Assembly: GCA_000403215.2 (NCBI GenBank)
Contig: KE159535.1
Span: 107,213 to 159,621, forward strand
Length of the DNA stretch: 52,409 bases
Direction of reading: 5' to 3'
Source of the DNA: Lachnospiraceae bacterium A4
GTDB lineage: Bacteria > Bacillota > Clostridia > Lachnospirales > Lachnospiraceae
A program made the translations under genes and the position numbers. Shown one piece after another: positions 14,220-32,223 of this stretch. Within the stretch, counting starts at the first letter, position 1; each line of letters begins with the position of its first letter. Below the pieces are notes generated by a model. It saw nothing but the letters and a program-made list of their open reading frames with translations. It had not been told where the DNA came from and searched no databases.

Positions 14220-15428
14220 TTAGGGAACTATAGGAAAATCATCAATAGCCGGTACATCTTCCTCAAACGTCTCCTCCCCAAGCTCATTGACCGCAGTATT
14301 TCCCGCTTTCCCATACTGATAAAGCTGGTCTAAGAACTCAATTGCCGCGCGGATCTTGGTGCGCAGCAGATATCCGCCCGACTGGGTGGAAGCTGCCAGC
14401 GAAGCGGCAGATAAATTCGGCGTCCATTCATAAGCCTTGCCATGAAAATCCTGTATTTTGCACAGCACCTCGTTGATTTCTTCTTTCGTCAAGGGCAGCA
14501 GCTGGGGCGCCTTTGTCAGCATATCCAATACCGATCTGGCTGGTTCCTGTTCCTCTGGATAGATCTCCTCAAGATTCATATACTCATGTTTCCCTTCTAT
14601 GACGTCCTCCACATAAGACGCACTGAGCGCAAAAATACTGAACGTCATTTCCGGACACTGGTCCGGCAGCAGGAACCCAGCCATATTCCGGTAAGCATTC
14701 AGACGCGCTTTCCTGCCAAGACGCCCCATAAGCTCCGTCTCATCAATCAAAATCGCCCATCCTTTATATCCCATCTGCGTAAAAAGGTGGCTCATAAATG
14801 AAATATAATCCCTGCAATGCTTGGTTTTGGTAAAATTCACATTGTACTTTACAGGCTGGTTAAAAATGCGCCGATAAATCTTTTTCAGTGATGCATTTGC
14901 GACAAAGTCCCCCTCTAAATCCGCCTGCAGAAGGAACTTTTCATCCGCATCCTCCGTATTGAGATAAGATCGAAACAGATAGTACAATTTATCTGTCTCG
15001 AGCTGCTTGGCCGCATATAAAAGCATCTCATTTGCTGTCGGACTCTTGGCCGATATCTTGTCCAGTTCACTCAAAAATCCAGGCTGCTCACGCTGGGGAA
15101 GATAGGTGCTCTGTATCAATTTCTGATACACCAGATAGAGCTTGTCCATCGGCGTCTCCTTGCTCAGTGACAAATAGGAAACTACCATGTTATTAGAATG
15201 GGCAAGATTAAACACCGTATTCAGCAGATGCGTCTTGCCTTCCCCATATTTTCCGCAAATCACCATTCCGCTTGATTTTCCCTGCTCACATACCTGATCC
15301 AGATGGTCTGAGATTTCCTTCATAATTTTCGGACGTGCCTCTGAAAAATACTGTCCCACAGCACGCGACGGCACCCCCGACCGCAGTGCTTCGATCATAT
15401 GCCTTGCCTCAAAATCATACATCAGCAT
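14220..15428 (-). CDS. BrxD-like (DUF2791) P-loop ATPase
   Basis: A 402-residue ATPase. The N-terminal ALRSGVPSRAVGQYF and the P-loop CGKYGEGKTHLLN (about residues 58-70) are the hallmarks of the BREX ATP-binding protein family (BrxD, DUF2791). A Walker B-like WAILIDETELMGRLGRKAR follows near residue 225. In known systems such ATPases work with a helicase in anti-phage defence (BREX type 2; a related ATPase is one of the Shango proteins). It is the last gene of a three-gene operon and overlaps the end of the preceding ATPase gene by 14 bases, so the two are translationally coupled. No PglZ, PglX or TerB partner is seen nearby. Confidence 0.8.
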   Translation of the reverse strand: MLMYDFEARHMIEALRSGVPSRAVGQYFSEARPKIMKEISDHLDQVCEQGKSSGMVICGKYGEGKTHLLNTVFNLAHSNNMVVSYLSLSKETPMDKLYLVYQKLIQSTYLPQREQPGFLSELDKISAKSPTANEMLLYAAKQLETDKLYYLFRSYLNTEDADEKFLLQADLEGDFVANASLKKIYRRIFNQPVKYNVNFTKTKHCRDYISFMSHLFTQMGYKGWAILIDETELMGRLGRKARLNAYRNMAGFLLPDQCPEMTFSIFALSASYVEDVIEGKHEYMNLEEIYPEEQEPARSVLDMLTKAPQLLPLTKEEINEVLCKIQDFHGKAYEWTPNLSAASLAASTQSGGYLLRTKIRAAIEFLDQLYQYGKAGNTAVNELGEETFEEDVPAIDDFPIVP

Positions 15429-16578
15429 CCACCTCCTGCATCGTCATTTGGATTAATTGCGGAATGCCCACTGCCCCTGTGTGTGCCCGTTCGATCAACT
15501 GCTCTGCGCATTCCAGATTCAACGGACGCACCAAAGCACTGTTCTGCACCCCTGCAATACTCTCGGACATCGCCACAATCACCTCTGGTGTATACTCCTG
15601 CATCGCAAGACGATCCATATCAATCATATCGGCAAAACGGTTAAACCGTTCTCCTACAATCTCATTTTGTATACGCATCCACAATGCCTGATAAGACTTG
15701 ATCCCTGCATTCTCATTGTCGAGCAGTTCTCGGTCAAAAGCATACACAAACATAATATTCTTCATACTGTCAATATCATCAATCAGCTGACGGACGCTCT
15801 CATACGTATCTTCCCGCTTTACCTTTGTATAATGTATCGCTTCCAGACTGGAACGGCTGGTCAGAATCTCCATATCATCAATCGTGACAAACAGACCCGA
15901 ATGACCGCCCATGCGGACCAGTTCCGCCAGTGAACGGAGCATATGCCTGGCATTATATTTGGTAATGCGGCTCGGATAAAAATCCAGTGCACGCAGCTGA
16001 GACAGTTTTATGGACCGGTCTCCCTCCAGCCACGCCATCAGCAGTTCCTTATTCTGCTCCTCCAGTATAGGATAGCCTAAAATACTTCCCGTGAGCATGC
16101 TGCATGCCAGCGCAAAATTATTGTCCATCAGCGGATTATCCAGAAAGGTTTTCCGCAGCAGCGTACGAATCTCGCGTTTGGTGATCGCATCTACCGAATC
16201 AATCTGGGAAAGATAGTCGATAAAGCGCATTCCTTCCGGTATCTTTTCATACTCAAACCCCATCTGCTGTACCACCTTGCGGCTGACTGCCGCCAGACAC
16301 GCCATGACATCGCACTGTCTGAAAATCTCCACATAGATGTCCTTAAAATCATGCAGCCAGATATCCTTTGCAGAAAACTGGGCTGTCTTATAATTTTCCT
16401 TATCAGCAACTGCTGTCATCAGCTTCAGGAAATGCGTTTTTCCGCTTCCCGGACGCCCTGTTATGAATTTGATCTTACTGCCGCCATCCCTTATGTATTC
16501 CTGAAAATATTTCTCCTGCCAGAAATCAGTCAGAAATTCAACTCCGCACAGAAGCTGTTCCCCGAAATCATCTTCCAT
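15415..16578 (-). CDS. Second P-loop ATPase of the cassette (DUF2791-like)
   Basis: A 387-residue ATPase with a Walker A at GRPGSGKTHFL (about residues 41-51) and a Walker B-like LFVTIDDMEIL near residue 232. The order of parts and length parallel the 402-residue neighbour, so the two are probably diverged paralogues that could form a hetero-oligomer. I place it near the BrxC/BrxD group with less certainty. ATG 16578 is preceded by a GGAGG-like site, 20 bases after the stop of the upstream 255-aa gene; its 3' end overlaps the next ATPase gene by 14 bases. The tight packing argues for a fixed stoichiometry. Confidence 0.75.
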   Translation of the reverse strand: MEDDFGEQLLCGVEFLTDFWQEKYFQEYIRDGGSKIKFITGRPGSGKTHFLKLMTAVADKENYKTAQFSAKDIWLHDFKDIYVEIFRQCDVMACLAAVSRKVVQQMGFEYEKIPEGMRFIDYLSQIDSVDAITKREIRTLLRKTFLDNPLMDNNFALACSMLTGSILGYPILEEQNKELLMAWLEGDRSIKLSQLRALDFYPSRITKYNARHMLRSLAELVRMGGHSGLFVTIDDMEILTSRSSLEAIHYTKVKREDTYESVRQLIDDIDSMKNIMFVYAFDRELLDNENAGIKSYQALWMRIQNEIVGERFNRFADMIDMDRLAMQEYTPEVIVAMSESIAGVQNSALVRPLNLECAEQLIERAHTGAVGIPQLIQMTMQEVDADV

Positions 16579-16598
16579 ACTGCGCCTCCCTTCACCAT

Positions 16599-17366
16599 TT
16601 ACTCATAAAAACGAATCGTTGCCAGAAACTGTTCTTTTCCATCCCTGCCCAAAATGCGAATCGCCTTCTGCCCAACCCGGGTCGGACCGAACTGGAACTT
16701 TTTCCCGTTTTTCGTTTCCTCTATTCCGGAGATATAGAGTCTTGCAAGGTCGAATGCGAAGCTCTGCTGGTCATAATCCTTCCGGAAACGGCTCATAGGC
16801 GCTAATACTTTATACAGATTTGTCAGATAAATATCAGACTGCGGCTGCCTGTTATATTTTAAAATTGCCAAATCATACGCATCCGACAATTCACTTGCAA
16901 AAGCCATGGCGTTAAACGGAGCCTTGTTCAGTCTGTCCTGTCCATTCTTTACGATATCCACAAAACTTTCCGGGCGCATGCACTGCACCTTTTTCCGGTC
17001 AAGATAAAGATCCTGATTTTCCGTATCGACCTTTACGCGGTAGGGAAACATTTCATAAACCGGAGATTCCCCACGGACATCCACACCTTTTTCTGCGCAG
17101 GCCGCAAGAATCTGTGCCGCAAATTCCCCACTCTCAAAATATCCTTTTGCATCAAACCCGTCTGCTGATGCCTTCATGGCTTTCACAGAGTCAGCAAGCG
17201 CCGAAACAGCCTGCACCATAGTCTCCATGTCCTTGACAAGACTCTTGACATCTCCGCCCTCCACCTCACGGTTCACCGCTTTAAACAGCTTCTGCAGGGC
17301 AGCCAGTCCGTCCTTTACATTTTTCTGCTGCGGCAGCAGATCCTGATAAAAATCTTCGTAATTCAT
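16599..17366 (-). CDS. Hypothetical protein, first gene of the ATPase operon
   Basis: A 255-residue soluble protein I do not recognise. The N-terminal ~75 residues (from LLPQQKNVKDGLAALQKLFKA to AVSALADSVKAMKASADG) look helical and coiled-coil-like. The rest is mixed, with a C-terminal beta-rich end (KFQFGPTRVGQKAIRILGRDGKEQF). ATG 17366 has GGGAG five bases upstream and a good promoter further up. It is the first gene of a unit with two P-loop ATPases and divergent from a helicase, so it may be an adaptor or effector; no nuclease motif is visible. Confidence 0.65.
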   Translation of the reverse strand: MNYEDFYQDLLPQQKNVKDGLAALQKLFKAVNREVEGGDVKSLVKDMETMVQAVSALADSVKAMKASADGFDAKGYFESGEFAAQILAACAEKGVDVRGESPVYEMFPYRVKVDTENQDLYLDRKKVQCMRPESFVDIVKNGQDRLNKAPFNAMAFASELSDAYDLAILKYNRQPQSDIYLTNLYKVLAPMSRFRKDYDQQSFAFDLARLYISGIEETKNGKKFQFGPTRVGQKAIRILGRDGKEQFLATIRFYE

Positions 17367-17431
17367 TCATTCTCCCATCTGTGCACCATTGCACCTAAAA
17401 ATTTATTTATCATACGTTACAAACTATAAAA

Positions 17432-17460
17432 AGTATATATGAAACGACATATTTTTTCAA
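17432..17460 (-). promoter_or_regulatory. Sigma-A-type promoter of the ATPase operon
   Basis: On the minus strand TTGAAA (17455-17460) and TATACT (17432-17437) are spaced by 17 bases, facing the 255-aa gene. It is back-to-back with the helicase promoter, only eight bases between the -35 boxes, so a single bound protein could control both. Confidence 0.7.
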
Positions 17461-17468
17461 TATTTTGT

Positions 17469-17496
17469 TTGAAAGAAGTCCATTTTCTGATATAAT
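17469..17496 (+). promoter_or_regulatory. Sigma-A-type promoter of the helicase gene
   Basis: TTGAAA (17469-17474), a 16-base spacer and TATAAT (17491-17496). Transcription would start near 17503, which excludes the in-frame TTG at 17465 and supports ATG 17534 as the helicase start. Confidence 0.75.
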
Positions 17497-17533
17497 ATTT
17501 TATCATTTACCACAAACTCAAAGGATCAAAATT

Positions 17534-19072
17534 ATGCAGCAAGAACTTTATCCATGGCAGGAGGATTGTCTCAAACGTTGGTTTGCGAACAATGGCAGAG
17601 GAATGGTGCAGGCTGTGACCGGTTCCGGCAAAACGCTTCTGGCGCTCACTGCCGCCAAACGGCTGTCAGAGAAAACAGACCGGGAACTGCGCGTGAAAAT
17701 CGTTGTTCCGACGAGCACACTCATGCATCAATGGAATCACACGTTAAGGAACTTCCTTGATGAAAATACATCAAAAATGATCGGACTGCGCGGAGGAGGA
17801 TACAAATCCGCAGCAGACTGCCGCTATATGATCTATGTGATAAACTCTGCGCGCTATGAGCTTGCACGGCAGATTTTATCAGAGCTTCACCATAAAAAGG
17901 CTGTCCTGCTCATTGCTGATGAATGCCATCATTATACAAGCAGGCAGAATCAGCTAATCTTTGAATTTCTGCCGCATTTACAACCTGATGAAAAGCATTT
18001 CTTTTCCCTGGGACTATCCGCTACGCTGCCCGCCGGCCAGGCAGGTCATGAACTTGCCGCAGCGCTTGGACGCAGAATATACAGTTATGAAATGGAGGCT
18101 GCGGCAGCGCGGCGCACCGTGTGCCCATACAATATCTTCCATATCGGACTCTCTTTCCAGCGCGATGAATGGGCGGAATATCAGGAGCTTTCTGATCGAA
18201 TGTCTGTCCTTTACTTCAGACTGCTGTCAGCGTTCCCGGAACTTGGCAGATTCAATCAGCAAGAGCGTTTCGAGCTGCTTCGCAGTCTGTCAGGTAACAA
18301 AAACAAAGGGATCGCGGACGCAGCACGCCAGTATATCCGCCTTTCATTTATCAGGAAAAATCTGGTCTGCATGGCTTCGGAGCGGCTGGACTGCGCATAT
18401 GACCTGATAAAATCTCTGGGTATCCACGATAAAATCCTAGTATTTGGCGAACGCATCCGTCAGGCCGAGGAGCTGTATACACGCCTGAGAAACGACTATC
18501 CCGGCAAAGTGGGACGATATCATTCCAAACTGGGAAACCAGGCAAACAAAAATGCTATGGAACGTTTCCGCCTTGGCGATATCCGAATCCTGATCGCCTG
18601 CAAAGCCATTGACGAGGGCGTCGATGTACCCGACACGGCGATCGGCATCATTCTGTCCGGCACTTCAACTCAACGGCAAAGAGTCCAGCGCCTCGGACGC
18701 ATTATTCGTCAAAAAGAGGGCAAAGAAAGCGCGCTGCTGTATTATCTGCATATTACAGAATCCTCGGAAGATGCCTGCTTTCTTCCAAATGCCAGCAAAA
18801 ACCGTATTTTTGATTTGGAATATCTGCCAAATACAGGTTCTTTTATGAACCATCATTATATGAAAAATGCGCGAATCCTCATAGAACGAATGAAGGAGGC
18901 CAATCTGCCGGAGAAACAAATACAGGAGGCCATACGCTGTTTTGATCTTGGCGTCATCAAGGCCGACTGGATGATTGAAATACATGCAATCGAACAGCAT
19001 ATTCAAAATGCCAAAACTACCAAAGAAAGGAATTATTGGATGTGTATGAAAAAGATGGCGGAACTTCAATAA
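17534..19072 (+). CDS. SF2 DNA/RNA helicase (ResIII/DECH-box) of the ATPase cassette
   Basis: A 512-residue superfamily 2 helicase. It shows PWQEDCLKRW (Q-like), motif I VTGSGKTLLA (about residue 35), motif II LIADECHHYTS (DECH box), motif III LSATLPAG, then in the C-terminal RecA domain DKILVFGERI, RILIACKAIDEGVDVPD (motif V) and QRVQRLGRIIR (motif VI). No nuclease or extra domain is attached. ATG 17534 has AAAGGA 8 bases upstream. It diverges from the ATPase operon with back-to-back promoters. In BREX type 2 and Shango a helicase accompanies a related ATPase, so I infer a DNA-targeting defence role; the substrate is unknown. Confidence 0.85.
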   Translation: MQQELYPWQEDCLKRWFANNGRGMVQAVTGSGKTLLALTAAKRLSEKTDRELRVKIVVPTSTLMHQWNHTLRNFLDENTSKMIGLRGGGYKSAADCRYMIYVINSARYELARQILSELHHKKAVLLIADECHHYTSRQNQLIFEFLPHLQPDEKHFFSLGLSATLPAGQAGHELAAALGRRIYSYEMEAAAARRTVCPYNIFHIGLSFQRDEWAEYQELSDRMSVLYFRLLSAFPELGRFNQQERFELLRSLSGNKNKGIADAARQYIRLSFIRKNLVCMASERLDCAYDLIKSLGIHDKILVFGERIRQAEELYTRLRNDYPGKVGRYHSKLGNQANKNAMERFRLGDIRILIACKAIDEGVDVPDTAIGIILSGTSTQRQRVQRLGRIIRQKEGKESALLYYLHITESSEDACFLPNASKNRIFDLEYLPNTGSFMNHHYMKNARILIERMKEANLPEKQIQEAIRCFDLGVIKADWMIEIHAIEQHIQNAKTTKERNYWMCMKKMAELQ

Positions 19073-19684: not shown

Positions 19685-19852
19685 ATGAAAAGTTCTAAAT
19701 TTACAAAATGGCTGGTTTTGTTTGCGCTGATTATATTTATTCAAAATGGGGCAGTCATTGTGCAAAATACTGGCAATGCTGGTGAGGCAGGTTCTGAGGA
19801 AAGCGTGATGCCTTATAGTGATTTTCCTGAGCAGGATGTTCCCTATGACTGA
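19685..19852 (+). CDS. Small exported peptide, candidate signal for the adjacent regulator
   Basis: A 55-residue precursor. A basic N-terminus (MKSSKFTKW) is followed by a hydrophobic core (LVLFALIIFIQNGAVIV), a small-residue region and an acidic C-terminal tail ending YSDFPEQDVPYD. This layout is that of Phr/PapR-type pro-peptides. ATG 19685 has GGAGG 11 bases upstream; an in-frame ATG at 19667 has none. The stop overlaps the last 10 bases of the convergent tandem-HTH regulator gene. Peptide and regulator pairs of the RNPP type are often adjacent, so I infer a quorum-sensing pair; the mature peptide is unknown. Confidence 0.6.
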   Translation: MKSSKFTKWLVLFALIIFIQNGAVIVQNTGNAGEAGSEESVMPYSDFPEQDVPYD

Positions 19853-21690
19853 TGTAGTTTCTCACATAAGAACTTCTCAATATATATTTGACGACAAAAA
19901 TGACTAAATGCTATGCATTGACGCAGGCCTTCAGTCATTTTGTCTTTTGATATCTTGTCCCCCTCATTTATTGCCTGCTCACTTTCATTCCATAATATAT
20001 CATACAATGAATTACTAACTGCCCATAATCTTTTACATTTCAATGATTCTTTAATTATTTTTTTATCTATGTTAATAGCAGTTTGATGTTTATCCATATT
20101 CCCCAACTCATTTGCCATGCTCACCATAACAAATTCGTACATTGAAATACAGTCAGACAACTCTTTTTTTCTCTCATACTGCTCAAAAAAACGTAGTAAT
20201 AATTTAATATACTCTCCCTTTTCTGTTTTTTCCAATCCCCTCATCCTTTTGCGAATACATGACATTTCCATCTCTGTCAAAAAAATTTCATTTATATCCG
20301 GTAGGTCATCTATGTTTAAAGTACATCGAAGGGCTTTCTCTTCTCTGAGTGCAAACTCTTCTTTGTTTATCTTCCCCTCCATCCAGTCTAATGAAGCTTC
20401 TATGTCAATAAAATATTGTTTGTTTTCTGGTATATTTAAAGAAATCTTTTCTTCTATCTGATTGAATAGATATCTGGCTTTTTTTACATCAAAATTGTTG
20501 CGGCATATATTTAACTCTTCGTATAGCCTTACAACATCCTCATCATCTGTCACAAGCCGCACCCTCTGATACTCCTTGGATAACCCAAGCCTGCGCATCA
20601 CTGCGCCCAGCATGTTCTGCTGCATATTTCTTTTCATTCTTTCTGTCCTGCGCAACGTCTTAGGAACACAGATACCTTTGCACAGTTCTTCCTGTGTCAG
20701 ACCATACATTTTCCTTCGAATCCGTAACACATCCCCGATATAAAATACCCATCTTTGCCGATACAAATACACGCAATCCTGCATATATACAGGAACATCA
20801 TACTCACAATAGAGCTTCCTAAATAATTCAATCAGCTCTGTGTTTTCTATGTATTCCTCTTGATTTGTTTCAATAATCTCAAATAACTTGCATTTTGCCT
20901 CTAATAGCTCAATCAAATAAAAAGCTCTTCCAGTATTGCGCAGCATCTCAATTGCACAATTACAAACTTGAAGGCTTTCCTCAACCCACTCTGGTGAAGA
21001 TAAAACGGAACCTGAGAATACTTCCCGCAAATAATAATACACTATTTTGGGATAAATCTTCACTTTTGACAGTTCATCATAAACGGAATCTGAGACATAT
21101 GTCATTAATGCGGCACATTTCTGCAAAAATTTTTCATCTTTATGATAAAACTCATACTCCAAAATCATATTGACTTCCTGTATCGACAACAGGCTTTTTC
21201 CCAAATTTAATTGCTCTATATCAGGTACCGTCAGCTTTACCGCCTGTTCATAGCACGCCCCAATCTCCAGCAAATCCGCTTTCTGCTGTTTTAACACCTC
21301 CGCTTTCATTACAAGGCAAAACTGTTGTTTTAATTTGTCCTTGGACAATTTCTGTCTGCCATACTCTGCAATGAATTGCTGCGCTTTTATTGTTTCTTGC
21401 TGTTCCACTGCCAGCATGATATTCCGCTGGCACTCCCATGTTCTGTAATCATCAATATCCAGCAAATTTTCATACAAATCGCTTGCAATCCCCAGCCGCC
21501 CCAAAAGACGGTCTCTCATATTCTTGTGAACCGGGCGCTGCCCTTTTTCAATTCTTGCAAGCTGACTTGCCGACATCAATCCCTCGGCTAACTGCTCAAG
21601 ATATATATTCCGCTCCTTCCGCACCCTCTGTAAAAAGCTTGCAAACGCTGGATCTGATTCCCTCAGTGCTTTTTGTGTGTCCTGTTTCAT
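19843..21690 (-). CDS. Tandem-HTH transcriptional regulator with helical repeat region (RNPP-like)
   Basis: A 615-residue protein with two Cro/CI-type HTH regions. The first is at about residues 16-70 (LEQLAEGLMSASQLARIEKG) and the second near 317-375 (GDVLRIRRKMYGLTQEELCK, then a TLRRTERM segment). Each is followed by a long all-helical stretch, as in TPR-like peptide-binding domains. The arrangement reads as an internal duplication of an HTH-TPR regulator. A gene for a small exported peptide overlaps it tail-to-tail. ATG 21690 has AGGA 8 bases upstream. An IS4-family element sits only 52 bases upstream and separates the gene from its original upstream DNA. Confidence 0.75.
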   Translation of the reverse strand: MKQDTQKALRESDPAFASFLQRVRKERNIYLEQLAEGLMSASQLARIEKGQRPVHKNMRDRLLGRLGIASDLYENLLDIDDYRTWECQRNIMLAVEQQETIKAQQFIAEYGRQKLSKDKLKQQFCLVMKAEVLKQQKADLLEIGACYEQAVKLTVPDIEQLNLGKSLLSIQEVNMILEYEFYHKDEKFLQKCAALMTYVSDSVYDELSKVKIYPKIVYYYLREVFSGSVLSSPEWVEESLQVCNCAIEMLRNTGRAFYLIELLEAKCKLFEIIETNQEEYIENTELIELFRKLYCEYDVPVYMQDCVYLYRQRWVFYIGDVLRIRRKMYGLTQEELCKGICVPKTLRRTERMKRNMQQNMLGAVMRRLGLSKEYQRVRLVTDDEDVVRLYEELNICRNNFDVKKARYLFNQIEEKISLNIPENKQYFIDIEASLDWMEGKINKEEFALREEKALRCTLNIDDLPDINEIFLTEMEMSCIRKRMRGLEKTEKGEYIKLLLRFFEQYERKKELSDCISMYEFVMVSMANELGNMDKHQTAINIDKKIIKESLKCKRLWAVSNSLYDILWNESEQAINEGDKISKDKMTEGLRQCIAFSHFCRQIYIEKFLCEKLHQS

Positions 21691-21747: not shown

Positions 21748-23359
21748 ACTTGAGAGTAAAAAGTTTTTTGTAAAAAAATAACCCTTCAGGATGAATTTAT
21801 GGTATCTTTAAGTTACCAACACTTAAGAAAGATACAAGCCACCAGAAGAGTTATTCTGTGTATAAGTTTACCATACTTTCTAGTGGTTTTCCATACGATT
21901 ATGATGAATTTTATTAATAAAGTCCTGTGCCATTTTGAATCCTGTTTTTCCCGTAAAGCATCTTTTGGCTGGTTTGTTACCATTACCCTGGGTCTGATGC
22001 TGCGTTCCGACAAGCTTGGTATTACTTCTGTTATCCGCGATCTTGCGCTTTGTCCGGGCTGTTATGGTTCCATGATCCATTTTTTTCGCTCATCCTCCTG
22101 GTCGCTGGAAAATCTACGTCTGCGCTGGTTTTCGGCGGTGAAGGAATACTCCCCACTTTATCAGGAAGGCGGTTTCCATGTCCTTGTGGGGGACGGGGTA
22201 AAGCAGTCCAAAGAAGGGCGGCGGATGCCCGGAGTGAAGAAACTGTTTCAGGAATCCGAAAACTCTGCTAAACCAGAGTATATCCACGGGCATATGTTCG
22301 GTGGTCTTGGTATCTTGGCTGGCAATGAACGCAGCTGGGCATGTATCCCCTTAAGCATCCGGCTCCACGACGGCCTTCAGGCTGCCAGGGAGTGGAAGGA
22401 CGCGGCTGTTTCCAGCTCCTCCCATGTAATACAGATGGTAGAGGATGCTTATCAGGCTGCCCTCACATTTGGGGATTCCCTGCTCCTGCTGGACAGATAC
22501 TTTCTCACCGTTCCAGCTCTTGAAAGACTGCAGTCCCTTAACAGCAGTGGAGACATACGCATGGAGATCGTTACTAAAGCAAAAAAGTCTGCTGTCGCAT
22601 ATGAAAAGCCAGGCCCCCGTAAATCCAGAAGGGGACGGCCGCCCAGGAAAGGAGCCGCTGTCCACCTGAAGGAAGCATTCCTCTCCCGTAAAGAAGAATT
22701 TCAGGACGCAGAAATTGAACTTTATGGCAGGAAAGAATCTATCCGCTATCTATGCCTGGATCTGCTGTGGGGGCAGAAGCTGTACCAGCAGCTACGTTTT
22801 GTTCTGGTAGAAATGAATGGAATCCAGAGTATTCTTGTGAGTACCAGCCTGGAACTGGAACCGCTTTCCGTCATCCGTCTGTACAGTTACCGGTTTCGGA
22901 TCGAATGCACCTTCAGGGAGCTGAAACAGCAGACCGGAGCATTCTGTTATCATTTTTGGTCAAAGCATATGCCTAAACTGAGCTATTACCAGAAGAAAGA
23001 AGAGGCCAGCCCCCTGGAAAAGGTGGTGGAAGAAAAGGAGCACAGTAATATACTGAAAACAGTACGGGCCATAGAAGTACATATGGTCTTATCCTGCGCA
23101 GCCATGGGTATCCTGCAGAGTCTTTCCATTCTCATGTCAGGGGAATTTTCACCCGGCCAGTTCCGTTACCAACGGACACCTTCCAAAGGAAGGGTATCGG
23201 AGGCTGCACTTATGGCCTACATGAGAAAATATTTTTTCCTGTTTACGGAAAAACATCCGGAATTACAAATAACACAAATAATTCGGAACCAACAAGATAC
23301 GTCAGGAACCTATGAGGATTCACTGGCTTCTTAATAGTGCAAACTTTTTACTCTCAAGT
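21748..23359 (+). mobile_element. Complete IS4-family insertion sequence (~1612 bp)
   Basis: The ends read ACTTGAGAGTAAAAAGTTT (21748-21766) and its reverse complement (23341-23359), flanked by ACTACA duplications. It carries one transposase gene, intact by eye. It lies in the upstream region of the tandem-HTH regulator, in the opposite orientation to it. Confidence 0.88.
21799..23334 (+). CDS. IS4-family DDE transposase
   Basis: A 511-residue transposase. First catalytic Asp is in HVLVGDGVKQSKEG, second in LLLLDRYFL, and the Glu falls in YSYRFRIECTFRELK, which matches the IS4-family YREK signature (Y-x2-R-x3-E-x6-K). The gene fills the element between its inverted repeats. ATG 21799 follows an AGGA eight bases upstream. 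There is no frameshift or stop, so the element may be active. Confidence 0.9.
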   Translation: MVSLSYQHLRKIQATRRVILCISLPYFLVVFHTIMMNFINKVLCHFESCFSRKASFGWFVTITLGLMLRSDKLGITSVIRDLALCPGCYGSMIHFFRSSSWSLENLRLRWFSAVKEYSPLYQEGGFHVLVGDGVKQSKEGRRMPGVKKLFQESENSAKPEYIHGHMFGGLGILAGNERSWACIPLSIRLHDGLQAAREWKDAAVSSSSHVIQMVEDAYQAALTFGDSLLLLDRYFLTVPALERLQSLNSSGDIRMEIVTKAKKSAVAYEKPGPRKSRRGRPPRKGAAVHLKEAFLSRKEEFQDAEIELYGRKESIRYLCLDLLWGQKLYQQLRFVLVEMNGIQSILVSTSLELEPLSVIRLYSYRFRIECTFRELKQQTGAFCYHFWSKHMPKLSYYQKKEEASPLEKVVEEKEHSNILKTVRAIEVHMVLSCAAMGILQSLSILMSGEFSPGQFRYQRTPSKGRVSEAALMAYMRKYFFLFTEKHPELQITQIIRNQQDTSGTYEDSLAS

Positions 23360-24041: not shown

Positions 24042-24671
24042 ATGAATATCCCTGAAGATTTTAGATATCAAAGTGCATGGGAAGATTTTAGAAATGCTAC
24101 AGATTATTTTATAGAATGTCTGCGTAATAATAGTGCCCATTTACTATATGGATGTGTCAAAAACATATTTATTGATATTCCAGATGAAAATCCAGTATAC
24201 AACAAAATTATTATTACCGAAGTAAGTTCACTTATAGAAGAAGTCTTAGACAGTTCTTACGATAAGTACGACTTGGAGAATTTTCTAAAAAATAGGTATT
24301 CTGATAACGAAATACATCAAAAAGATATAGAGGATATTTTAAATATTGTCGATAAAAAATATCAGTATATCGTAGAAAATATAATTGATGATGAAATGAT
24401 AAAAAGATATTTCTTTAAAGAAAATACAATCCTCAGCAAACTTTCATCCATTAAGACAGACATAAATAAATATATTATTGACAATGGGGAAGAAGTAAAA
24501 TATGCTTTAATCAAAATGAGTGTCAATGATAAATTACCCAACTTTGCATATTCAAGGCAGATGGCTGGACTGACCGACAGCAGTGGGAGAACGCTTGAAT
24601 TTGTATGTGACATGAATGACCTAGCATATTTGATTGAACAATTAGAGCTTATCAAAAAAAAGCTACGTTAA
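24042..24671 (+). CDS. Uncharacterised protein with possible COMM-like C-terminus
   Basis: A 209-residue soluble acidic protein. The first ~140 residues look all-helical (FRYQSAWEDFRNATDYFIECL, DIEDILNIVDKKYQYIV). The last ~55 (YALIKMSVNDKLPNFAYSR, SGRTLEFVCDMNDLAYLIEQL) have the beta-strand then helix layout of COMM-type domains; this is a weak resemblance. It carries AAGGAACTGAAAAGT before ATG 24042 and is the first gene of a three-gene operon that ends in a PIN-like nuclease. A partner or antitoxin role is an inference from position only. Confidence 0.6.
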   Translation: MNIPEDFRYQSAWEDFRNATDYFIECLRNNSAHLLYGCVKNIFIDIPDENPVYNKIIITEVSSLIEEVLDSSYDKYDLENFLKNRYSDNEIHQKDIEDILNIVDKKYQYIVENIIDDEMIKRYFFKENTILSKLSSIKTDINKYIIDNGEEVKYALIKMSVNDKLPNFAYSRQMAGLTDSSGRTLEFVCDMNDLAYLIEQLELIKKKLR

Positions 24672-24689
24672 GTCTATAAGGAGACAGTG

Positions 24690-25247
24690 ATGGATAATAA
24701 TCAAACATTTGTTGCTTACTATATGCAGAAAAATGATCTTCCCTCTAGCCATGAATCATTCAAAGACGTTGTAAAGCATGACAAGGACATACTGCAGAAT
24801 AAATATTTAATGAAAGAGAATCCGATAAAGTCAAACTTTAATTACGTGATTACCGTTCCCTTTAATCCATCCGCAAAGCAAGAATACTCAAAAGGAAAAG
24901 GCATAATAAACGTAAATCTTGATAAAATGCTAGATGTTCTAGAGAATATGGAAGATAATGACGATATTCGAATCCAAATCCAGTATGTTACCAGAATCAT
25001 TAAGCAATTAGATATTTTATATAAAAATGGTTATATCAGCAATAACAAAAGAAAAGTAATTGTACTTTTTAGAAGTGTACTAAAGTTAAACCGTGATAAC
25101 AGTGTATTTAGTGATAAACAGCTTGAAGAATTTAAGAAAATACTAAAACTCATTCGCGGCTATGAAACAGAAGATACGAACTTGGTTCTGTCAGTTGAAA
25201 AAGATTTAAGAGAAGCTGGATTGAGGACAATGGTATCATGGGAGTAA
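24690..25247 (+). CDS. Uncharacterised protein, second gene of the PIN operon
   Basis: A 185-residue soluble protein, lysine- and asparagine-rich, that I do not recognise. It has a beta-like NFNYVITVPF segment, then helices (VNLDKMLDVLENM, IQYVTRIIKQLDIL). ATG 24690 stands six bases after AAGGAG; a GTG directly before it is less well spaced. It lies 18 bases after the first gene and three bases before the PIN-like gene, so the three are surely co-expressed. It may bind and restrain the nuclease. Confidence 0.6.
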   Translation: MDNNQTFVAYYMQKNDLPSSHESFKDVVKHDKDILQNKYLMKENPIKSNFNYVITVPFNPSAKQEYSKGKGIINVNLDKMLDVLENMEDNDDIRIQIQYVTRIIKQLDILYKNGYISNNKRKVIVLFRSVLKLNRDNSVFSDKQLEEFKKILKLIRGYETEDTNLVLSVEKDLREAGLRTMVSWE

Positions 25248-25250
25248 TAC

Positions 25251-26003
25251 ATGAAGGCACTATTGGATACAACAATACAGATTGACCGCATATTTGGATC
25301 AGATAGACGAATTGCTCGAATTAATGAAGTTTTAAAAGGAAAACAATTAATTTCCTCAACATATGTTTTAGGAGAATATTATAAGAATATCGTCAATGAT
25401 TTTGTAACTTTATATAACATATTTTTGCAGGAGAACGACATAAAACAGACCGGATGCAGAATCACGGAAAATATTCTTGGACGCAGTCAATCGCGTATTT
25501 TTAAATTGTTTAATAATATAGCTGCTAATTGCAGTTATGATTTAGATTTAATCAAGGATAGTCTGGAAAATTATGTAGACATTTTAATTGGACGTTTTAA
25601 CGAAGACCTTATTGATATATTAGATAATACAAATTGTTACCGTGCTAAAGCAACTGTTATATATGAAGATGGTATTCCTATTTTGAAAAATATTTTATGT
25701 TCCAAAAAGAACAAACAATGCTGCATATGTGAGTTTTGGGAAAAACGCCAAAATGAATTAAAAAAACTGCTGAAAAACCCAGAATATAATGACGATTTAA
25801 AAAACATCATTAAAAGTGCATTGTTAGATCCAAATCAATTTAAAGGAATCAACTGTATGAAATTAGGCGATACTGTGATTGCTTCTGAAATCCTGGGTTT
25901 AACAGATACTGTGATTTGCAACAGTAATAAAAAAGATTTCGAACCGATATGTAAATCGCTAAATCTAAAACTGCTCTCGCCCGATTATTCGGAACGATCA
26001 TAA
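25251..26003 (+). CDS. PIN-like nuclease, putative toxin or effector
   Basis: A 250-residue protein that starts and ends like a PIN domain: first acidic residue in LLDTT (Asp6), Glu42 in VLGEYYKN, then Asp207 in KLGDTVIASE and a final acidic site near Asp229 (NSNKKDF). Between them lies an unusually long insert (about 55-200) with a cysteine cluster (Cys150, 157, 158, 160), perhaps a metal site. PIN domains cut single-stranded RNA; many are toxins. At 250 residues it is about twice the size of a VapC toxin. It starts three bases after the previous gene. The identification rests on motif placement. Confidence 0.6.
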   Translation: MKALLDTTIQIDRIFGSDRRIARINEVLKGKQLISSTYVLGEYYKNIVNDFVTLYNIFLQENDIKQTGCRITENILGRSQSRIFKLFNNIAANCSYDLDLIKDSLENYVDILIGRFNEDLIDILDNTNCYRAKATVIYEDGIPILKNILCSKKNKQCCICEFWEKRQNELKKLLKNPEYNDDLKNIIKSALLDPNQFKGINCMKLGDTVIASEILGLTDTVICNSNKKDFEPICKSLNLKLLSPDYSERS

Positions 26004-26060: not shown

Positions 26061-28772
26061 CTATATTCTTTGAATTAATTCTGTCAGATTTCTCACTAAT
26101 GCCAGATCAGACTCCTCATGATGAATAAAAGAACTGTTCAGCCCATTTCTGCGTACCCTGTCTATCCAGAGCAGTGCCGCCTCCCTGCTGATACCTTTTT
26201 CCAGCATTCCATAATAAATATATGCCAGCTCATTTGACACATTTGTATTAAAAACCGCAGGATCATCTGAATTTATACAAACTATTATATTTTGTTCATC
26301 ATTTAACTGATTTAGTTGATAAAACTGATTTTCATACAATATATCTAAATCAGCAATTGCTGTGTTTGAAGAGGGGTTCACCTCCAAAACAATTCCCTTT
26401 TGACCTAATTTTTTCTTGAGAATTTTCTGCAATTCTTCTATGATCAGTATATCCTGTTGGGTAATCTCGCAATGAATGGGCTTTTCCATCTTTTTTACAA
26501 ACACTTTACAATGCCTTGCTGCGGTTACAAGTTCAGGTCTCCATTGAATCGGCTCTTCATCAGCTAATTTTCTGCACAGTTCTCTCTCCGCCACCATAAA
26601 TGCATCACATGATATAATATCATCTTTAAAAGAAAACAGCTTACGATATCCGTCTATCAGCAGCTCTGTCGCAATACCTTCTTTATCTCCTCCATATATT
26701 TTTCTCGAAAGCTCATAAATCCGCTTTTCCATAAAAGTAAGTATTGCTGCCTGAAAATTGCTGTAATGATTGCTCAATGTATCATATGCCCATAGATAAT
26801 TCTCCAGTGCTTCAAGTTGTGGAAGTATAACTACTGGATTCTGTTCTCTCCATTTTTGCGGATTGAGTCCAAGCGCAATTCCATGGCCAATTCGGTCTCC
26901 TGCATGAAACTTTAAGTGTTCTACAACCTCATCTATTCGGCGTAAACCAGAAAGTATATGGCGAAAATCTTCTCCAGCATGAAAAGTGAAACCAAGACTC
27001 TGCATATAATTTCTGTCATTAGAGCTTCTGCCAATTAAGTCAATACTGCTGTCTCGCGCCTTTTCAAAAATCGGCGCAAAAACCCATACAGGGGTCGCGT
27101 TTTCCAGACTTGCTGCATCTATTCCAACCAAATACTTACTCAACTCTGTAAATTCACTACGCAGTTGTGTAAATGCATCGATCTGCTTTCTATACGACTG
27201 TTGAAGCTGTCCAAATTGAAAATACGAACAATCCAGTTTCCCATTGTGGAAACACTTCTCTAAAGCGGTCTCATCCTCCCGTTTCAGAAAATGAATTACT
27301 AATCCTGCCTGCGGGATTCGCTTATAGGGCACTCCATTATTACAATAATCTTCTGTAATGATTTTATGATAGGCCTTCAGAAAATGAACAACATCCTTTT
27401 TAAATTCGCTGTAAGCCTCTGGCATAGATGTTCGAAATTCAATCTTGCGCAAATCTCTGTTCTGTAGCTGTTCTCTGAGTGCTGTCTCCCAAAAGTTGTT
27501 TATATTCGCATGATTCAATGCAGAATTTACTCGATAATGCTCCTGTTGAAAATAATCCAGCCCTTTAATCGTTTTTTGCTGGACACTTTTATGAAACAAA
27601 TAATTTCTAACACGCAGATATTGCATGATACAGCGTTTTATATCAACTTCCTTCTGATCATCTTTCTGGCTGACTGGCTGTTGAATGTTTGTTACAGCTT
27701 CCAGCAAAATCCGCAACACATGATATAAAAATATATTTTCGTCTAATGTATGAATTTCACTATCATTTTCCAGCACCAATGTACAGAATTTTCCCTCAAA
27801 AACATCTTTGGGCAGATTTTTGGTCAAGCCATTCCACAAATTTACAAAATAAGAAATTATATTTTTTTCGTTATCCTTTGCACTATACTGCCCATGCCAA
27901 AATTCAAGTTTAAACCGGTTTTCAAACGGCTGTCCCTCTTGAAAATCATGCACAAGCCCCAGCACTTCGTCCTGAATATCTTTTTTGAGTAGTTCGTTTC
28001 CCTTTCCAGTCATAGCAAAAATCAGATATGCTCTCACAATTCCACATCCCAATATGCGAAACAATACGCGCGCATTCTGTTCCTCTGTGCCATTCACGAA
28101 CTTCATATTTTGAAAATACTTCCCCTTCTTTGCTGTTAATGGTTCCATCAAGGAATCCCAAATACTAGGAAATGTTCTGGAAACTCCCTTGTGCAGATGG
28201 TTTTCAGCGACGCCTGTCTCCAATATACGCGCAAGCTGCTGGTCTGCTACCTCTATATTTCCATAAAAATTATCAAGACAATTTATATTTGGACACTTTT
28301 GATTCATAATCATATAAACAATCGCAACCACATCCATCGGAATATGACTGCTCAAATTATGAAATAGTGTCACCTTATTGCTTCCTGCAAATCCGCCAAA
28401 CAGTTTTTCATCTTCTTCATTTTTCCAATACTTAAAAACAATCTTTCCATCTCTATGAGAAATCAAGGCCCTTGCCATCCTGCAAACTGTATGTTGATAC
28501 AACTCTAATTCATCTCTATAACCCTCAGCATCATAAAGATAGCATTTCTCCAAGTACAGGTAGATCTCATCATAGGAATAAATATTGTAATTTTGCTGAA
28601 TGTAGACAATCAGCCGACTTCTCAAACGATCCAAGATCTGTTTTGCCGCTTTGTGTTCACACACTTTTACAGTTTCTATATATTCTCTGATCAGTTCTTG
28701 ACGAAACATATCCATAGAGACAAACGGATAACACAGAACGCCTAAAAACCGATTAATGGAATCATTGATCAT
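26061..28772 (-). CDS. rdrB: RADAR adenosine deaminase-like protein RdrB
   Basis: A 903-residue protein with all catalytic signatures of the adenosine deaminase superfamily spread over a very long chain: metal-binding H-x-H in ENHLHKG (192-194), FHAGE (597-601), RIGHG (627-631), EVNPSSN (797-803) and NSDDP (834-838). Ordinary adenosine deaminases have ~350 residues; the large insertions, the size and the preceding ~900-residue ATPase identify RdrB of the RADAR anti-phage system. RADAR converts adenosine to inosine in nucleotides or RNA during infection. It starts 11 bases after rdrA stops, with AAGGGGG upstream. All metal-site residues look intact, so the enzyme should be active. Confidence 0.9.
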   Translation of the reverse strand: MINDSINRFLGVLCYPFVSMDMFRQELIREYIETVKVCEHKAAKQILDRLRSRLIVYIQQNYNIYSYDEIYLYLEKCYLYDAEGYRDELELYQHTVCRMARALISHRDGKIVFKYWKNEEDEKLFGGFAGSNKVTLFHNLSSHIPMDVVAIVYMIMNQKCPNINCLDNFYGNIEVADQQLARILETGVAENHLHKGVSRTFPSIWDSLMEPLTAKKGKYFQNMKFVNGTEEQNARVLFRILGCGIVRAYLIFAMTGKGNELLKKDIQDEVLGLVHDFQEGQPFENRFKLEFWHGQYSAKDNEKNIISYFVNLWNGLTKNLPKDVFEGKFCTLVLENDSEIHTLDENIFLYHVLRILLEAVTNIQQPVSQKDDQKEVDIKRCIMQYLRVRNYLFHKSVQQKTIKGLDYFQQEHYRVNSALNHANINNFWETALREQLQNRDLRKIEFRTSMPEAYSEFKKDVVHFLKAYHKIITEDYCNNGVPYKRIPQAGLVIHFLKREDETALEKCFHNGKLDCSYFQFGQLQQSYRKQIDAFTQLRSEFTELSKYLVGIDAASLENATPVWVFAPIFEKARDSSIDLIGRSSNDRNYMQSLGFTFHAGEDFRHILSGLRRIDEVVEHLKFHAGDRIGHGIALGLNPQKWREQNPVVILPQLEALENYLWAYDTLSNHYSNFQAAILTFMEKRIYELSRKIYGGDKEGIATELLIDGYRKLFSFKDDIISCDAFMVAERELCRKLADEEPIQWRPELVTAARHCKVFVKKMEKPIHCEITQQDILIIEELQKILKKKLGQKGIVLEVNPSSNTAIADLDILYENQFYQLNQLNDEQNIIVCINSDDPAVFNTNVSNELAYIYYGMLEKGISREAALLWIDRVRRNGLNSSFIHHEESDLALVRNLTELIQRI

Positions 28773-28783
28773 TTGTATCCCCC

Positions 28784-31597: not shown

Positions 31598-31608
31598 AAT
31601 ATTTCTCC

Positions 31609-32223
31609 TTATCTATCGTACTTCTGTACAAACCAGCATATTGCGTATCCTCTGCTCCTCTCCGCAAAACGAATCCAACGTCTCGCAAACAACACCACAC
31701 TGACCGCCCCTATTATGATTTCTGTCATATTTTGTTGTCCAACCCCTATTCCCATCGCCAATACAGATACCACCACCATATTTTTATATAACAGTTCTGC
31801 GGAAGCATAATTGTGCAGGCGGCTATATTGTGAATCTGCCTGTATTTCACTGTACATAAATGTCGTATATCTTCTGGCCATCGCACCTGCGCTATCATTC
31901 AGAGGACTCTCTATCAACTTTGCCTTTTGGAGTGCATCATTTATCTTTGCATCTGAAATCCCATAAATTTTGCAAATATTTTCCCAATATTTATTTATCA
32001 TATTATCGCCTAGCACTTTGTTCAGCAGACATACTATACAATCTGCCAACTCTGTAAACACCACTCCCACCACATAACCCAAAACGATCAGCAGAACTAA
32101 TCCGCCTAGAGTAAGATTATCCGCCAAATATGATAGATCTCCATTATATAACAACAAGGCGATTACTCCCGGAAGTGTATAACCAAACAAATCATATAAT
32201 GTTAATTTTTGTAATAATTCCAT
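31609..32223 (-). CDS. RADAR-associated membrane protein (Csx27/RdrD-like)
   Basis: A 204-residue protein with four predicted membrane helices in two pairs: LFGYTLPGVIALLLY and GLVLLIVLGYVVGVVF near the N-terminus, then MVVVSVLAMGIGVG and EIIIGAVSVVLF near the C-terminus, around a ~75-residue soluble middle. Some RADAR loci add a membrane protein, either a SLATT protein (RdrC, two helices) or a Csx27-like one (RdrD). Four helices favour the latter, but I cannot confirm it by alignment. ATG 32223 has AGGAG nine bases upstream. As first gene of the operon it may act as a membrane-located accessory. Confidence 0.7.
   Translation of the reverse strand: MELLQKLTLYDLFGYTLPGVIALLLYNGDLSYLADNLTLGGLVLLIVLGYVVGVVFTELADCIVCLLNKVLGDNMINKYWENICKIYGISDAKINDALQKAKLIESPLNDSAGAMARRYTTFMYSEIQADSQYSRLHNYASAELLYKNMVVVSVLAMGIGVGQQNMTEIIIGAVSVVLFARRWIRFAERSRGYAICWFVQKYDR

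What the first reader, a model, noticed from the sequence alone, without database searches (positions are those of the whole stretch)
14220..19072. Compact two-ATPase plus helicase cassette, possibly an undescribed defence system
A BrxD-like ATPase (GKYGEGKTHLL), a second P-loop ATPase overlapping it by 14 bases and a 255-aa unknown protein form one operon. It is divergent from a DECH-box helicase, with back-to-back sigma-A promoters (17432-17460 and 17469-17496). BREX type 2 and Shango pair a related ATPase with a helicase, but no PglZ, PglX or TerB-domain gene is present here. The double ATPase and the 255-aa protein do not fit either system as I know it.
Basis: partly seen in the sequence, partly recalled or inferred. 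Interest (0 to 1): 0.8.

Follow-up and report, generated by a model that had tools for sequence, protein, structure and literature searches.

The report
Portable three-gene partner of DNA motors
A small protein of unknown kind and two related ATPases, one of which seems to have lost its power to burn ATP, form a portable bacterial gene trio that often sits beside one of many different DNA-unwinding machines, CRISPR's among them, and so probably helps them act on invading DNA, although this has not been tested.

Summary
In detail: U255, ATP387 and ATP402 form one operon, divergent from an SF2 helicase (HEL). Both ATPases are BrxC/BrxD-family; U255 matches no family; no named system fits. Of 80 related loci 67 hold all four genes and 11 others run out of contig. 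Wherever the contig allowed, U was followed by two such ATPases, while the neighbouring DNA motor changes: PbeA/XPB-like helicase, SNF2, Ski2/Lhr-like, SngB-SngC, SF1-PLD, BrxL (19 loci) and, in two CRISPR loci (types I-D, I-B), Cas3, the trio lying between cas3 and cas1. ATP402 keeps Walker B 'DE' in 67 of 67 readable rows, ATP387 in 5 of 68: one active and one apparently hydrolysis-deficient ORC/Cdc6-type subunit. Best reading: a defence module that loads or licenses a DNA motor on invading DNA. Trio, portability and asymmetry are shown; loading and defence are inferred. Against: 11 of 47 uncut loci outside the HEL clade show no motor, another (L179) only a BREX neighbour; known defence genes are sparse around the Lachnospiraceae-type copies; nothing was tested on phage.

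The parts
14220..15428 (-). ATP402: active-type ORC/Cdc6-like AAA+ ATPase (PF10923), third gene of the trio
   Evidence: PF10923 97 bits; Walker A GKYGEGKTH, Walker B ILIDETELM; DE in 67 of 67 readable rows of 68; AlphaFold2 model pLDDT 82.6; best Foldseek neighbours RdrA, BrxC, Cdc6, none at E<=0.001
15415..16578 (-). ATP387: partner AAA+ ATPase (PF10923) with the catalytic Walker B Glu replaced (TIDDMEIL), second gene of the trio
   Evidence: PF10923 107.8 bits; second Walker B acid is Glu in only 5 of 68 aligned rows
16599..17366 (-). U255: protein of unknown family, N-terminal helical hairpin plus alpha/beta part, first gene of the trio
   Evidence: no family at useful scores; model pLDDT 87.6; no PDB fold at E<=0.001; homologues followed by two BrxD-type ATPases wherever the contig allows
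17534..19072 (+). HEL: SF2 helicase (ResIII/DEAD + Helicase_C; PbeA/XPB-like) without the N-terminal part of PbeA; 512 aa from ATG
   Evidence: Pfam; PADLOC PbeA 209.4 bits, matching only PbeA 252-632 of 672; TIGR04095 154 bits, cut-off 600
17432..17460 (-). promoter-like site for the trio
   Evidence: 10 of 12 consensus matches, spacer 17
17469..17496 (+). promoter-like site for the helicase
   Evidence: 11 of 12 consensus matches, spacer 16, TG before the second hexamer

Best explanation
The trio is a heteromeric AAA+ module of the ORC/Cdc6 type that serves a DNA motor encoded beside it. ATP402 hydrolyses ATP; ATP387 binds nucleotide in most lineages but is largely hydrolysis-deficient and plays a structural or regulatory part; U255 is the adaptor, its helical hairpin holding the ATPases and its alpha/beta part contacting DNA or the motor. 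On invading DNA the complex loads or licenses the motor (here the SF2 helicase HEL; elsewhere BrxL, SNF2, Ski2-like, SngBC or Cas3), which then unwinds, translocates on or blocks that DNA, so that replication of the invader fails; where the motor has a nuclease (Cas3-HD, the HD of Cas10d in type I-D, SF1-PLD) the DNA is cut. Shown: one conserved trio, exchangeable motor, clade-wise pairing with a motor type, catalytic asymmetry of the motifs. Inferred: complex formation, the roles given to the parts of U, loading, the target, and defence itself.
For: Trio order kept in 14 of 14 phylum-wide loci (L172 cut inside ATP402) and in 39 of 40 further loci, the other being cut. A motor lies beside it in 35 of 47 uncut loci outside the HEL clade: BrxL 19, SngBC 5, Ski2-like 4, SNF2 4 (in two of these one small gene lies between), Cas3 2, SF1-PLD 1. 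Motor type follows the tree of the trio: 7 changes for 7 motor states, the least possible being 6 (quick tree). In two CRISPR loci the trio lies between cas3 and cas1 on one strand. ATP402 keeps the catalytic Glu; ATP387 has lost it in 63 of 68 rows. ATP402's best fold neighbours are RdrA, BrxC and Cdc6. Published passages: BrxL is MCM-like and other factors may load it (PMC10164562); BrxD may load or activate BrxHI (PMC12839542).
Against: 11 of 47 uncut loci have no motor recognised beside the trio with the references used, and L179 has only a BREX locus nearby; L038 in the HEL clade has none either; two of the 11 (L181, L237) carry an HTH gene instead. Around the 80 genome-contig loci flanks are not conserved, and a sample of 100 of 354 near-flank ORFs gave few defence matches at E<=1e-20 (25 of 36 families shown). 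Only two CRISPR loci, in two genomes of one family; in one of them (L178) the script found no array on the contig. The homology of U to the Desulfomonile protein is weak by profile (23% probability). ATP402's fold matches are all above E 0.001. A Walker B 'DD' can in principle still hydrolyse.
Confidence: 0.5

Rival explanations
1. Sensor and switch the other way round: the motor surveys DNA (stalled forks, ends, R-loops) and the trio is the downstream AAA+ switch that triggers arrest or cell death, as a Hachiman-like or RADAR-like abortive system without a recognisable nuclease.
For: The cassette here has no recognised nuclease domain; ATP402's best fold neighbour is the RADAR ATPase RdrA; a helicase as sensor is described for Hachiman (start of the abstract of PMC12278908 in the listing).
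Against: The trio pairs with motors that carry nuclease partners of their own (Cas3-HD; SF1-PLD), which suits an aid to the motor better than a separate killer; U has no fold match that suggests a toxin, which is weak evidence.
Confidence: 0.2
2. Divergent Shango/BREX-2 relative: merely a BrxD-BrxHI or SngB-SngC dyad whose ATPase duplicated and whose third subunit drifted away.
For: ATP387 aligns with a SngB over 273 columns (E 3.9e-13), ATP402 less well (1.4e-6); both match SngB and BrxD profiles at 50-75 bits; the Desulfomonile cassette has a SngC-like helicase (phmmer 3.1e-32).
Against: U has no similarity to two SngA proteins; five loci carry SngB-SngC and the full trio together, so the trio is not a worn Shango; HEL matches a SngC only in the N-terminal helicase part (E 2.7e-4).
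Confidence: 0.1
3. Not defence: an accessory DNA-repair or replication-restart module for host or mobile elements.
For: Few known defence genes around the genome contigs copies; varied sites; ORC/Cdc6-type ATPases and helicases serve replication and repair too (established knowledge).
Against: Patchy presence (8 of 36 own-genus genomes, own included; 13 of 298 others in the phylum sample); place inside two CRISPR operons and pairing with BrxL and SngBC.
Confidence: 0.17
4. Phosphorothioate-dependent restriction in the manner of PbeABCD, HEL being PbeA.
For: HEL's best PADLOC and NCBIfam profiles are PbeA and TIGR04095.
Against: Only the helicase part matches; no PbeB-D match among the window proteins scanned; DndC reaches its cut-off in 0 of 11 cassette-bearing genomes (6 of 11 have sub-threshold matches).
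Confidence: 0.03

Closest known systems
BrxD-BrxHI dyad of type 2 BREX
   Same: BrxD-family ORC/Cdc6 ATPase next to an SF2 helicase; loading or activation of the helicase has been proposed (PMC12839542, passages)
   Different: Two ATPases, one degenerate; a U protein; no PglZ, PglX or PglW match in the window proteins scanned; motor not fixed
Shango (SngA-SngB-SngC)
   Same: BrxD-like ATPase with a helicase; SngB related to ATP387 and ATP402
   Different: No SngA/TerB; second ATPase; five loci hold SngB-SngC plus the trio
BrxL of type 1 and type 4 BREX
   Same: BrxL directly follows the trio in 19 loci
   Different: No recurrent BREX partner around it: no match to the type 3 BrxC, PglXI, PglZ or BrxA references, and among 74 flank ORFs of 16 of the 19 loci no PADLOC family matched more than 2 (the two best are SNF2 genes; 59 of 84 families were not shown, so single partners cannot be excluded)
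Type I-D and I-B CRISPR-Cas
   Same: Trio inside two such loci, between cas3 and cas1
   Different: The trio is not named in the passages I read on I-D (PMC10212523) or in the 2025 classification (PMC12669027)
Active plus inactive Orc/CDC6 pair with KAP NTPase (PMC10853773, passage)
   Same: Pairs an active Orc/CDC6 protein with one whose Walker B is disrupted
   Different: Described there with KAP, not with U or a helicase; whether the ATPases are close relatives was not tested
PbeABCD
   Same: HEL resembles the helicase part of PbeA
   Different: N-terminal part of PbeA missing, no PbeB-D match in the window proteins scanned, no DndC over cut-off
ORC-Cdc6 loading of MCM (PMC10164562 compares BrxL with MCM; the rest recalled)
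   Same: Heteromeric active and inactive AAA+ subunits beside an MCM-like ring in the BrxL loci
   Different: Bacterial, accessory; ring loading not shown

Membership tests
BREX type 2 | BrxD equivalog | tested here: not met
   NCBIfam NF033438 50.9 and 72.7 bits against cut-off 350
BREX type 2 | PglZ, PglX, PglW, BrxC in the locus | tested here: not met
   No PglZ, PglX or PglW match among the 10 window proteins scanned with PADLOC, and BrxC only as 14.7 and 11.6 bits on the ATPases themselves; for HEL 25 of 51 families were shown; other window ORFs were not scanned with PADLOC
Shango | SngA with TerB domains | tested here: not met
   No TerB match; U vs two SngA proteins: hhalign probability 0.1
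Shango | SngB ATPase | tested here: inconclusive
   PADLOC SngB 55.2 and 60.4 bits, partial stretches
Shango | SngC helicase | tested here: inconclusive
   HEL profile vs a SngC: 169 columns of the N-terminal helicase part, E 2.7e-4, probability 42%; SngC not among the best 25 of 51 PADLOC families
PbeABCD | PbeA with its N-terminal nuclease (HKD, per PMC10853773) | tested here: not met
   HEL's match starts at PbeA position 252; no nuclease domain in Pfam
PbeABCD | Dnd modification genes in the genome | tested here: not met
   DndC over cut-off in 0 of 11 genomes
PF10923 BrxC_BrxD ATPase family | curated gathering score | tested here: met
   97 and 107.8 bits against 22.2
Anti-phage defence system | protects cells from phage or plasmid | not testable with these tools
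   needs plating assays
CRISPR-Cas accessory module | CRISPR array or cas operon beside it | tested here: not met
   Not in the window: no array by script, and in PADLOC only helicase-domain Cas3 matches of HEL and a Csx27-like protein at 31609-32223. Met elsewhere only in L177 (operon and array) and L178 (operon, no array found)

The most novel reading that the evidence does not exclude
Bacteria carry a portable ORC/Cdc6-like motor loader for immunity: one active and one dead AAA+ subunit plus a new adaptor family, plugged into unrelated immune motors (SF2 helicases, MCM-like BrxL, SngBC, Cas3). It would be the missing loading factor for BrxL and would give some type I CRISPR systems a dedicated loader for Cas3, a bacterial counterpart of ORC-Cdc6-MCM turned against invaders.
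Probability: 0.33. Interest if true: 0.93.

Novelty: categorically new. Interest (0 to 1): 0.8.

Why it matters
Defence genes are usually filed by system. Here one three-gene core, with a protein family absent from the libraries searched, keeps changing the motor it serves, across CRISPR, BrxL and free-standing helicases. If it loads or licenses them, it answers how BrxL is put on DNA (raised as a possibility in PMC10164562), predicts that some type I CRISPR systems use a dedicated AAA+ helper for Cas3, and gives a marker (U followed by two BrxD-type ATPases) with which to find many unannotated systems: 43 of 154 genomes of one class have a match to U.

Tried and rejected
Rejected: Shango (no SngA), BREX 2 (no partners, BrxD below cut-off), PbeABCD (no nuclease, no DndC). 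Rows dropped before counts: the ninth hit (G057), a proA-like gene by my reading; G680 (60-codon frame); G928 (66 codons). Of the 47 match rows I read 42 (39 newly fetched, 3 held before) and left 5 (G982, G986, G1054 and two of G1073). The 'BREX-3 association' of L179 was not counted as a motor: its sisters L181 and L237 carry a related HTH gene and the trio, and no BREX reference matched beside them. Lone BrxD-family genes (L150-L152; own genome G000:C37, L155, beside mfd and pth) were set aside as another branch. Foldseek gave no fold for U at E<=0.001. Viral contigs (0 of 8 pattern matches confirmed with A2), phages and plasmids gave no relative; the U of L179 found Desulfomonile alone. 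The control on motor density (50 motor matches within 1.5 kb in 183.7 kb, 0 beyond 4 kb in 301.3 kb, 69 loci) is biased, since the reference motors were taken from neighbours; I lean on the tree instead. In that tree L044 and L255 are long branches whose join is unsure, and the script left out L244 and L248.
Full report
What is there. In transcription order the minus-strand operon is U255, ATP387, ATP402; HEL is divergent and the promoter-like sites between them are there. Both ATPases belong to PF10923. U255 matches no family in Pfam or NCBIfam at E<=0.1 and only AbiEii at 0.076 in PADLOC. HEL is an SF2 helicase nearest to PbeA in PADLOC and to TIGR04095 and XPB in NCBIfam, but lacks the N-terminal part of PbeA. 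U255 is predicted well (pLDDT 87.6, pTM 0.68): two long helices (3-37, 40-69) that I read as a hairpin, then an alpha/beta part; no solved fold matches at E<=0.001, and a sequence search of solved structures gave 43 weak matches, largely designed or natural coiled coils and helical bundles aligned to the first 70 or so positions.

Is the quartet conserved? In the window's own genus 8 of 36 genomes, the window's included, have U255 (a ninth hit outside the genus was a chance match). In a sample of the family 8 of 299 genomes have strong ATP387 homologues (394 bits or more, own included). A scan of genome contigs (one genome for each of 84,980 species) gave 231 related stretches, of which the best 80 were kept. 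Of these 80, 67 have all four genes, a few partial (for example L055, L092): 63 in the window's arrangement, 3 with HEL downstream on the same strand, 1 with HEL in front on the same strand. Of the other 13, 11 end within about 730 bases on the side where the missing gene would lie, and 2 (L095, without U; L125, without U) look incomplete. The flanking genes are not shared (the best cluster of flank ORFs is seen in 13 of 80 loci), so the block sits at many sites. In these loci it is not in rich defence islands: of 100 ORFs sampled from 354 of at least 150 aa within 3.5 kb, PADLOC at E<=1e-20 showed mad3 in 4 and PDC-S05, PDC-S23 and PDC-S27 in 1 each among the 25 families listed of 36. In the window itself a divergent RADAR-like pair lies about 7 kb from HEL.

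The unit is the trio. A profile of U found it in 15 of 299 genomes of the phylum (own included; one is a 60-codon fragment that I dropped). The 14 loci in the 13 other genomes all have U, then ATP387, then ATP402, on one strand (L172 ends inside ATP402). In another class 43 of 154 genomes have a match to U; smaller samples gave 5 of 20 with one fragment, 2 of 15 and 5 of 63. Forty loci fetched show U followed by two BrxD-type ATPases in 39, the fortieth being cut. Three more are again HEL type, L258 being cut before ATP402. Outside the phylum, Sphaerochaetaceae carry the HEL type (L124), and a Desulfomonile tiedjei plasmid carries genes for a 279-aa protein, two BREX-type ATPases and a DEAD helicase in a row on one strand. 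There the ATPases pair one to one with ours (hhalign E 6.1e-14 and 1.5e-15; the crossed pairs are weaker, 2.6e-4 and 7.2e-11); the 279-aa protein is related to U only weakly by profile (E 9e-4, 23%), but its gene was the only plasmid hit of the U of L179 (E 2e-4 in 7.3 billion bases), and it finds four clostridial U proteins in reverse.

The motor changes. For 52 loci outside the HEL clade (L044, L148, L175-L184, L218-L257) I read what lies beside the trio: BrxL 19, SngB-SngC 5, Ski2/Lhr-like helicase 4, SNF2 helicase 4 (in L175 and L176 a small gene lies between), Cas3 2, an SF1 helicase with PLD nuclease 1, next to a type 3 BREX locus without a motor in contact 1 (L179; BREX genes), no motor recognised with the references used 11, cut by the contig end 5. 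So 35 of 47 uncut loci have a motor beside the trio. The BrxL labels rest on the L183 protein (BrxL_N and BrxL_ATPase in Pfam) and phmmer scores of 341-683 bits in the other 18 loci. To see whether these are simply BREX loci I scanned 74 flank ORFs of 200 aa or more from 16 of the 19 BrxL loci: no PADLOC family matched more than 2 of 74 at E<=1e-10, the top ones being two SNF2 genes, with 59 of 84 families not shown. A recurrent BREX partner is thus absent; a single one cannot be excluded.

On a tree of the trio (67 loci, quick method) the seven motor states need 7 changes, the least possible being 6, and 12 changes if 'none' and 'BREX-3' are counted as states: motor types are nearly clade-specific, with SNF2 in two places. 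That is the pattern of a functional pairing that is now and then replaced, and it is firmer than my density control, whose references came from the same neighbourhoods.

CRISPR. In L177 the order on one strand is cas10d, cas11d, cas7d, cas5d, cas3d, U, ATP387, ATP402, cas1, a cas2-like frame (read by eye), cas4, cas4, and beyond them a CRISPR array whose commonest 20-mer has 85 copies. In L178 it is cas8b, cas7b, cas5b, cas3 with HD, U, ATP387, ATP402, two frames that I read as a HEPN/nucleotidyltransferase pair, cas1, a cas2-like frame, cas4; there the script found no array on the contig, which begins 391 bases beyond cas4. Between the two loci cas1 and the shared cas4 are 93% identical, U 75%, ATP402 60%, ATP387 56%, while no effector or cas3 protein matched at E<=1e-3. 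The effector halves were thus exchanged over one adaptation half, and the trio diverged more than the adaptation genes did, which suits a tie to the effector and Cas3 side. These are two loci in two genomes of one family, so the case is real but narrow. Gaps of 443 (L177) and 200 (L178) bases separate the trio from cas3, and 457 bases (L177) or the HEPN-like pair (L178) separate it from cas1, so it may have its own promoter.

One live and one dead ATPase. ATP402 has Walker B DE in 67 of 67 readable rows of 68. ATP387 has DE in 5 of 68 (the four Ski2-like loci and L171), otherwise DD 29, DN 22, DG 6, DI 3, DH 1, DQ 1, GG 1; its P-loop lysine is lost in the two Cas3 loci and three SNF2 loci. Many of these rows are related, so they are not 68 independent events. 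In the 80-locus set the pattern is the same: ATP387 D 52, N 14, 12 unreadable by my regular expression; ATP402 E 75, 5 unreadable. The DD class could keep some activity; DN and DG should not (established knowledge of AAA+ proteins). ATP402's model (pLDDT 82.6) has as best fold neighbours RdrA, BrxC and Cdc6, with ORC subunits further down, none at E<=0.001.

How it probably works. Shown: conserved trio, exchangeable motor, clade-wise pairing, catalytic asymmetry, presence in CRISPR operons and beside BrxL. Inferred: that the three proteins form one ORC/Cdc6-like complex, that it puts or licenses the motor on invading DNA, and that this is immunity. The inference leans on two published suggestions: that BrxD may load or activate BrxHI (PMC12839542, passages) and that BrxL, MCM-like, may be loaded by other factors (PMC10164562, passages). 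In the window the motor is HEL and no nuclease is recognised, so blocking or unwinding invader DNA is likelier than cutting it. I give this 0.5; the rivals are listed with their tests.

What is known. The ATPase-helicase dyad idea belongs to BREX 2 and Shango; an active plus inactive Orc/CDC6 pair has been described with a KAP NTPase (PMC10853773, passage). I found no description of U, of the trio, or of its place in CRISPR or beside BrxL: searches (listings), the outline and passages of PMC12839542, and passages of PMC12669027, PMC10952713, PMC10212523, PMC10164562, PMC10853773 and PMC10910872. No paper was read whole and no supplement was seen. Subscription papers and preprints are mostly not held, so prior description cannot be excluded. 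I file it as categorically new as a module, while saying plainly that its ATPases belong to a known family and that its function is untested.

Noticed in passing
window 26061-32223 (-): Divergent RADAR-like pair: RdrB-like deaminase (NF041744 185.9 bits, cut-off 800) and RdrA-like ATPase (NF041743 51.9 bits, cut-off 600) with a Csx27-like 204-aa protein (19.2 bits, cut-off 65); all far below the curated cut-offs.
   Followed up: partly
window 24042-26003 (+): Three small unknown genes between an IS-type transposase gene (21799-23334) and the RADAR-like genes; only weak PDC-M21B and PDC-M10B matches for two of them.
   Followed up: no
window 19843-21690 (-): 615-aa protein with two HTH_3 stretches next to the helicase gene; no match beside the cassette in the seven same-genus stretches searched.
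   Followed up: partly
L178:3651-4359: HEPN/nucleotidyltransferase-like pair between the trio and cas1 of the type I-B locus, read by eye from translations; PADLOC gave nothing for the HEPN-like frame.
   Followed up: no
L233, L253, L257: Near the trio and BrxL lie a gene weakly like a DEAD helicase and an SNF2-like gene, so a larger assembly may exist in that clade.
   Followed up: partly
L155 (G000:C37:118000-132000) and L150-L152: Lone BrxD-family ATPase genes; in the window's own genome one lies near mfd and peptidyl-tRNA hydrolase genes, suggesting a housekeeping branch of PF10923.
   Followed up: partly
L175:10899-11480, L176:10858-11418: A 186-193-aa protein without PADLOC match (the L175 one also without Pfam match) sits between the trio and the SNF2 helicase in two loci.
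   Followed up: no
L235:9774-13289: SMC-like AAA_27 protein directly upstream of a trio that has an SNF2 helicase downstream.
   Followed up: no
window helicase residues 410-512 and homologues: C-terminal region with a strongly conserved NYWxCM motif and no Pfam domain there.
   Followed up: no
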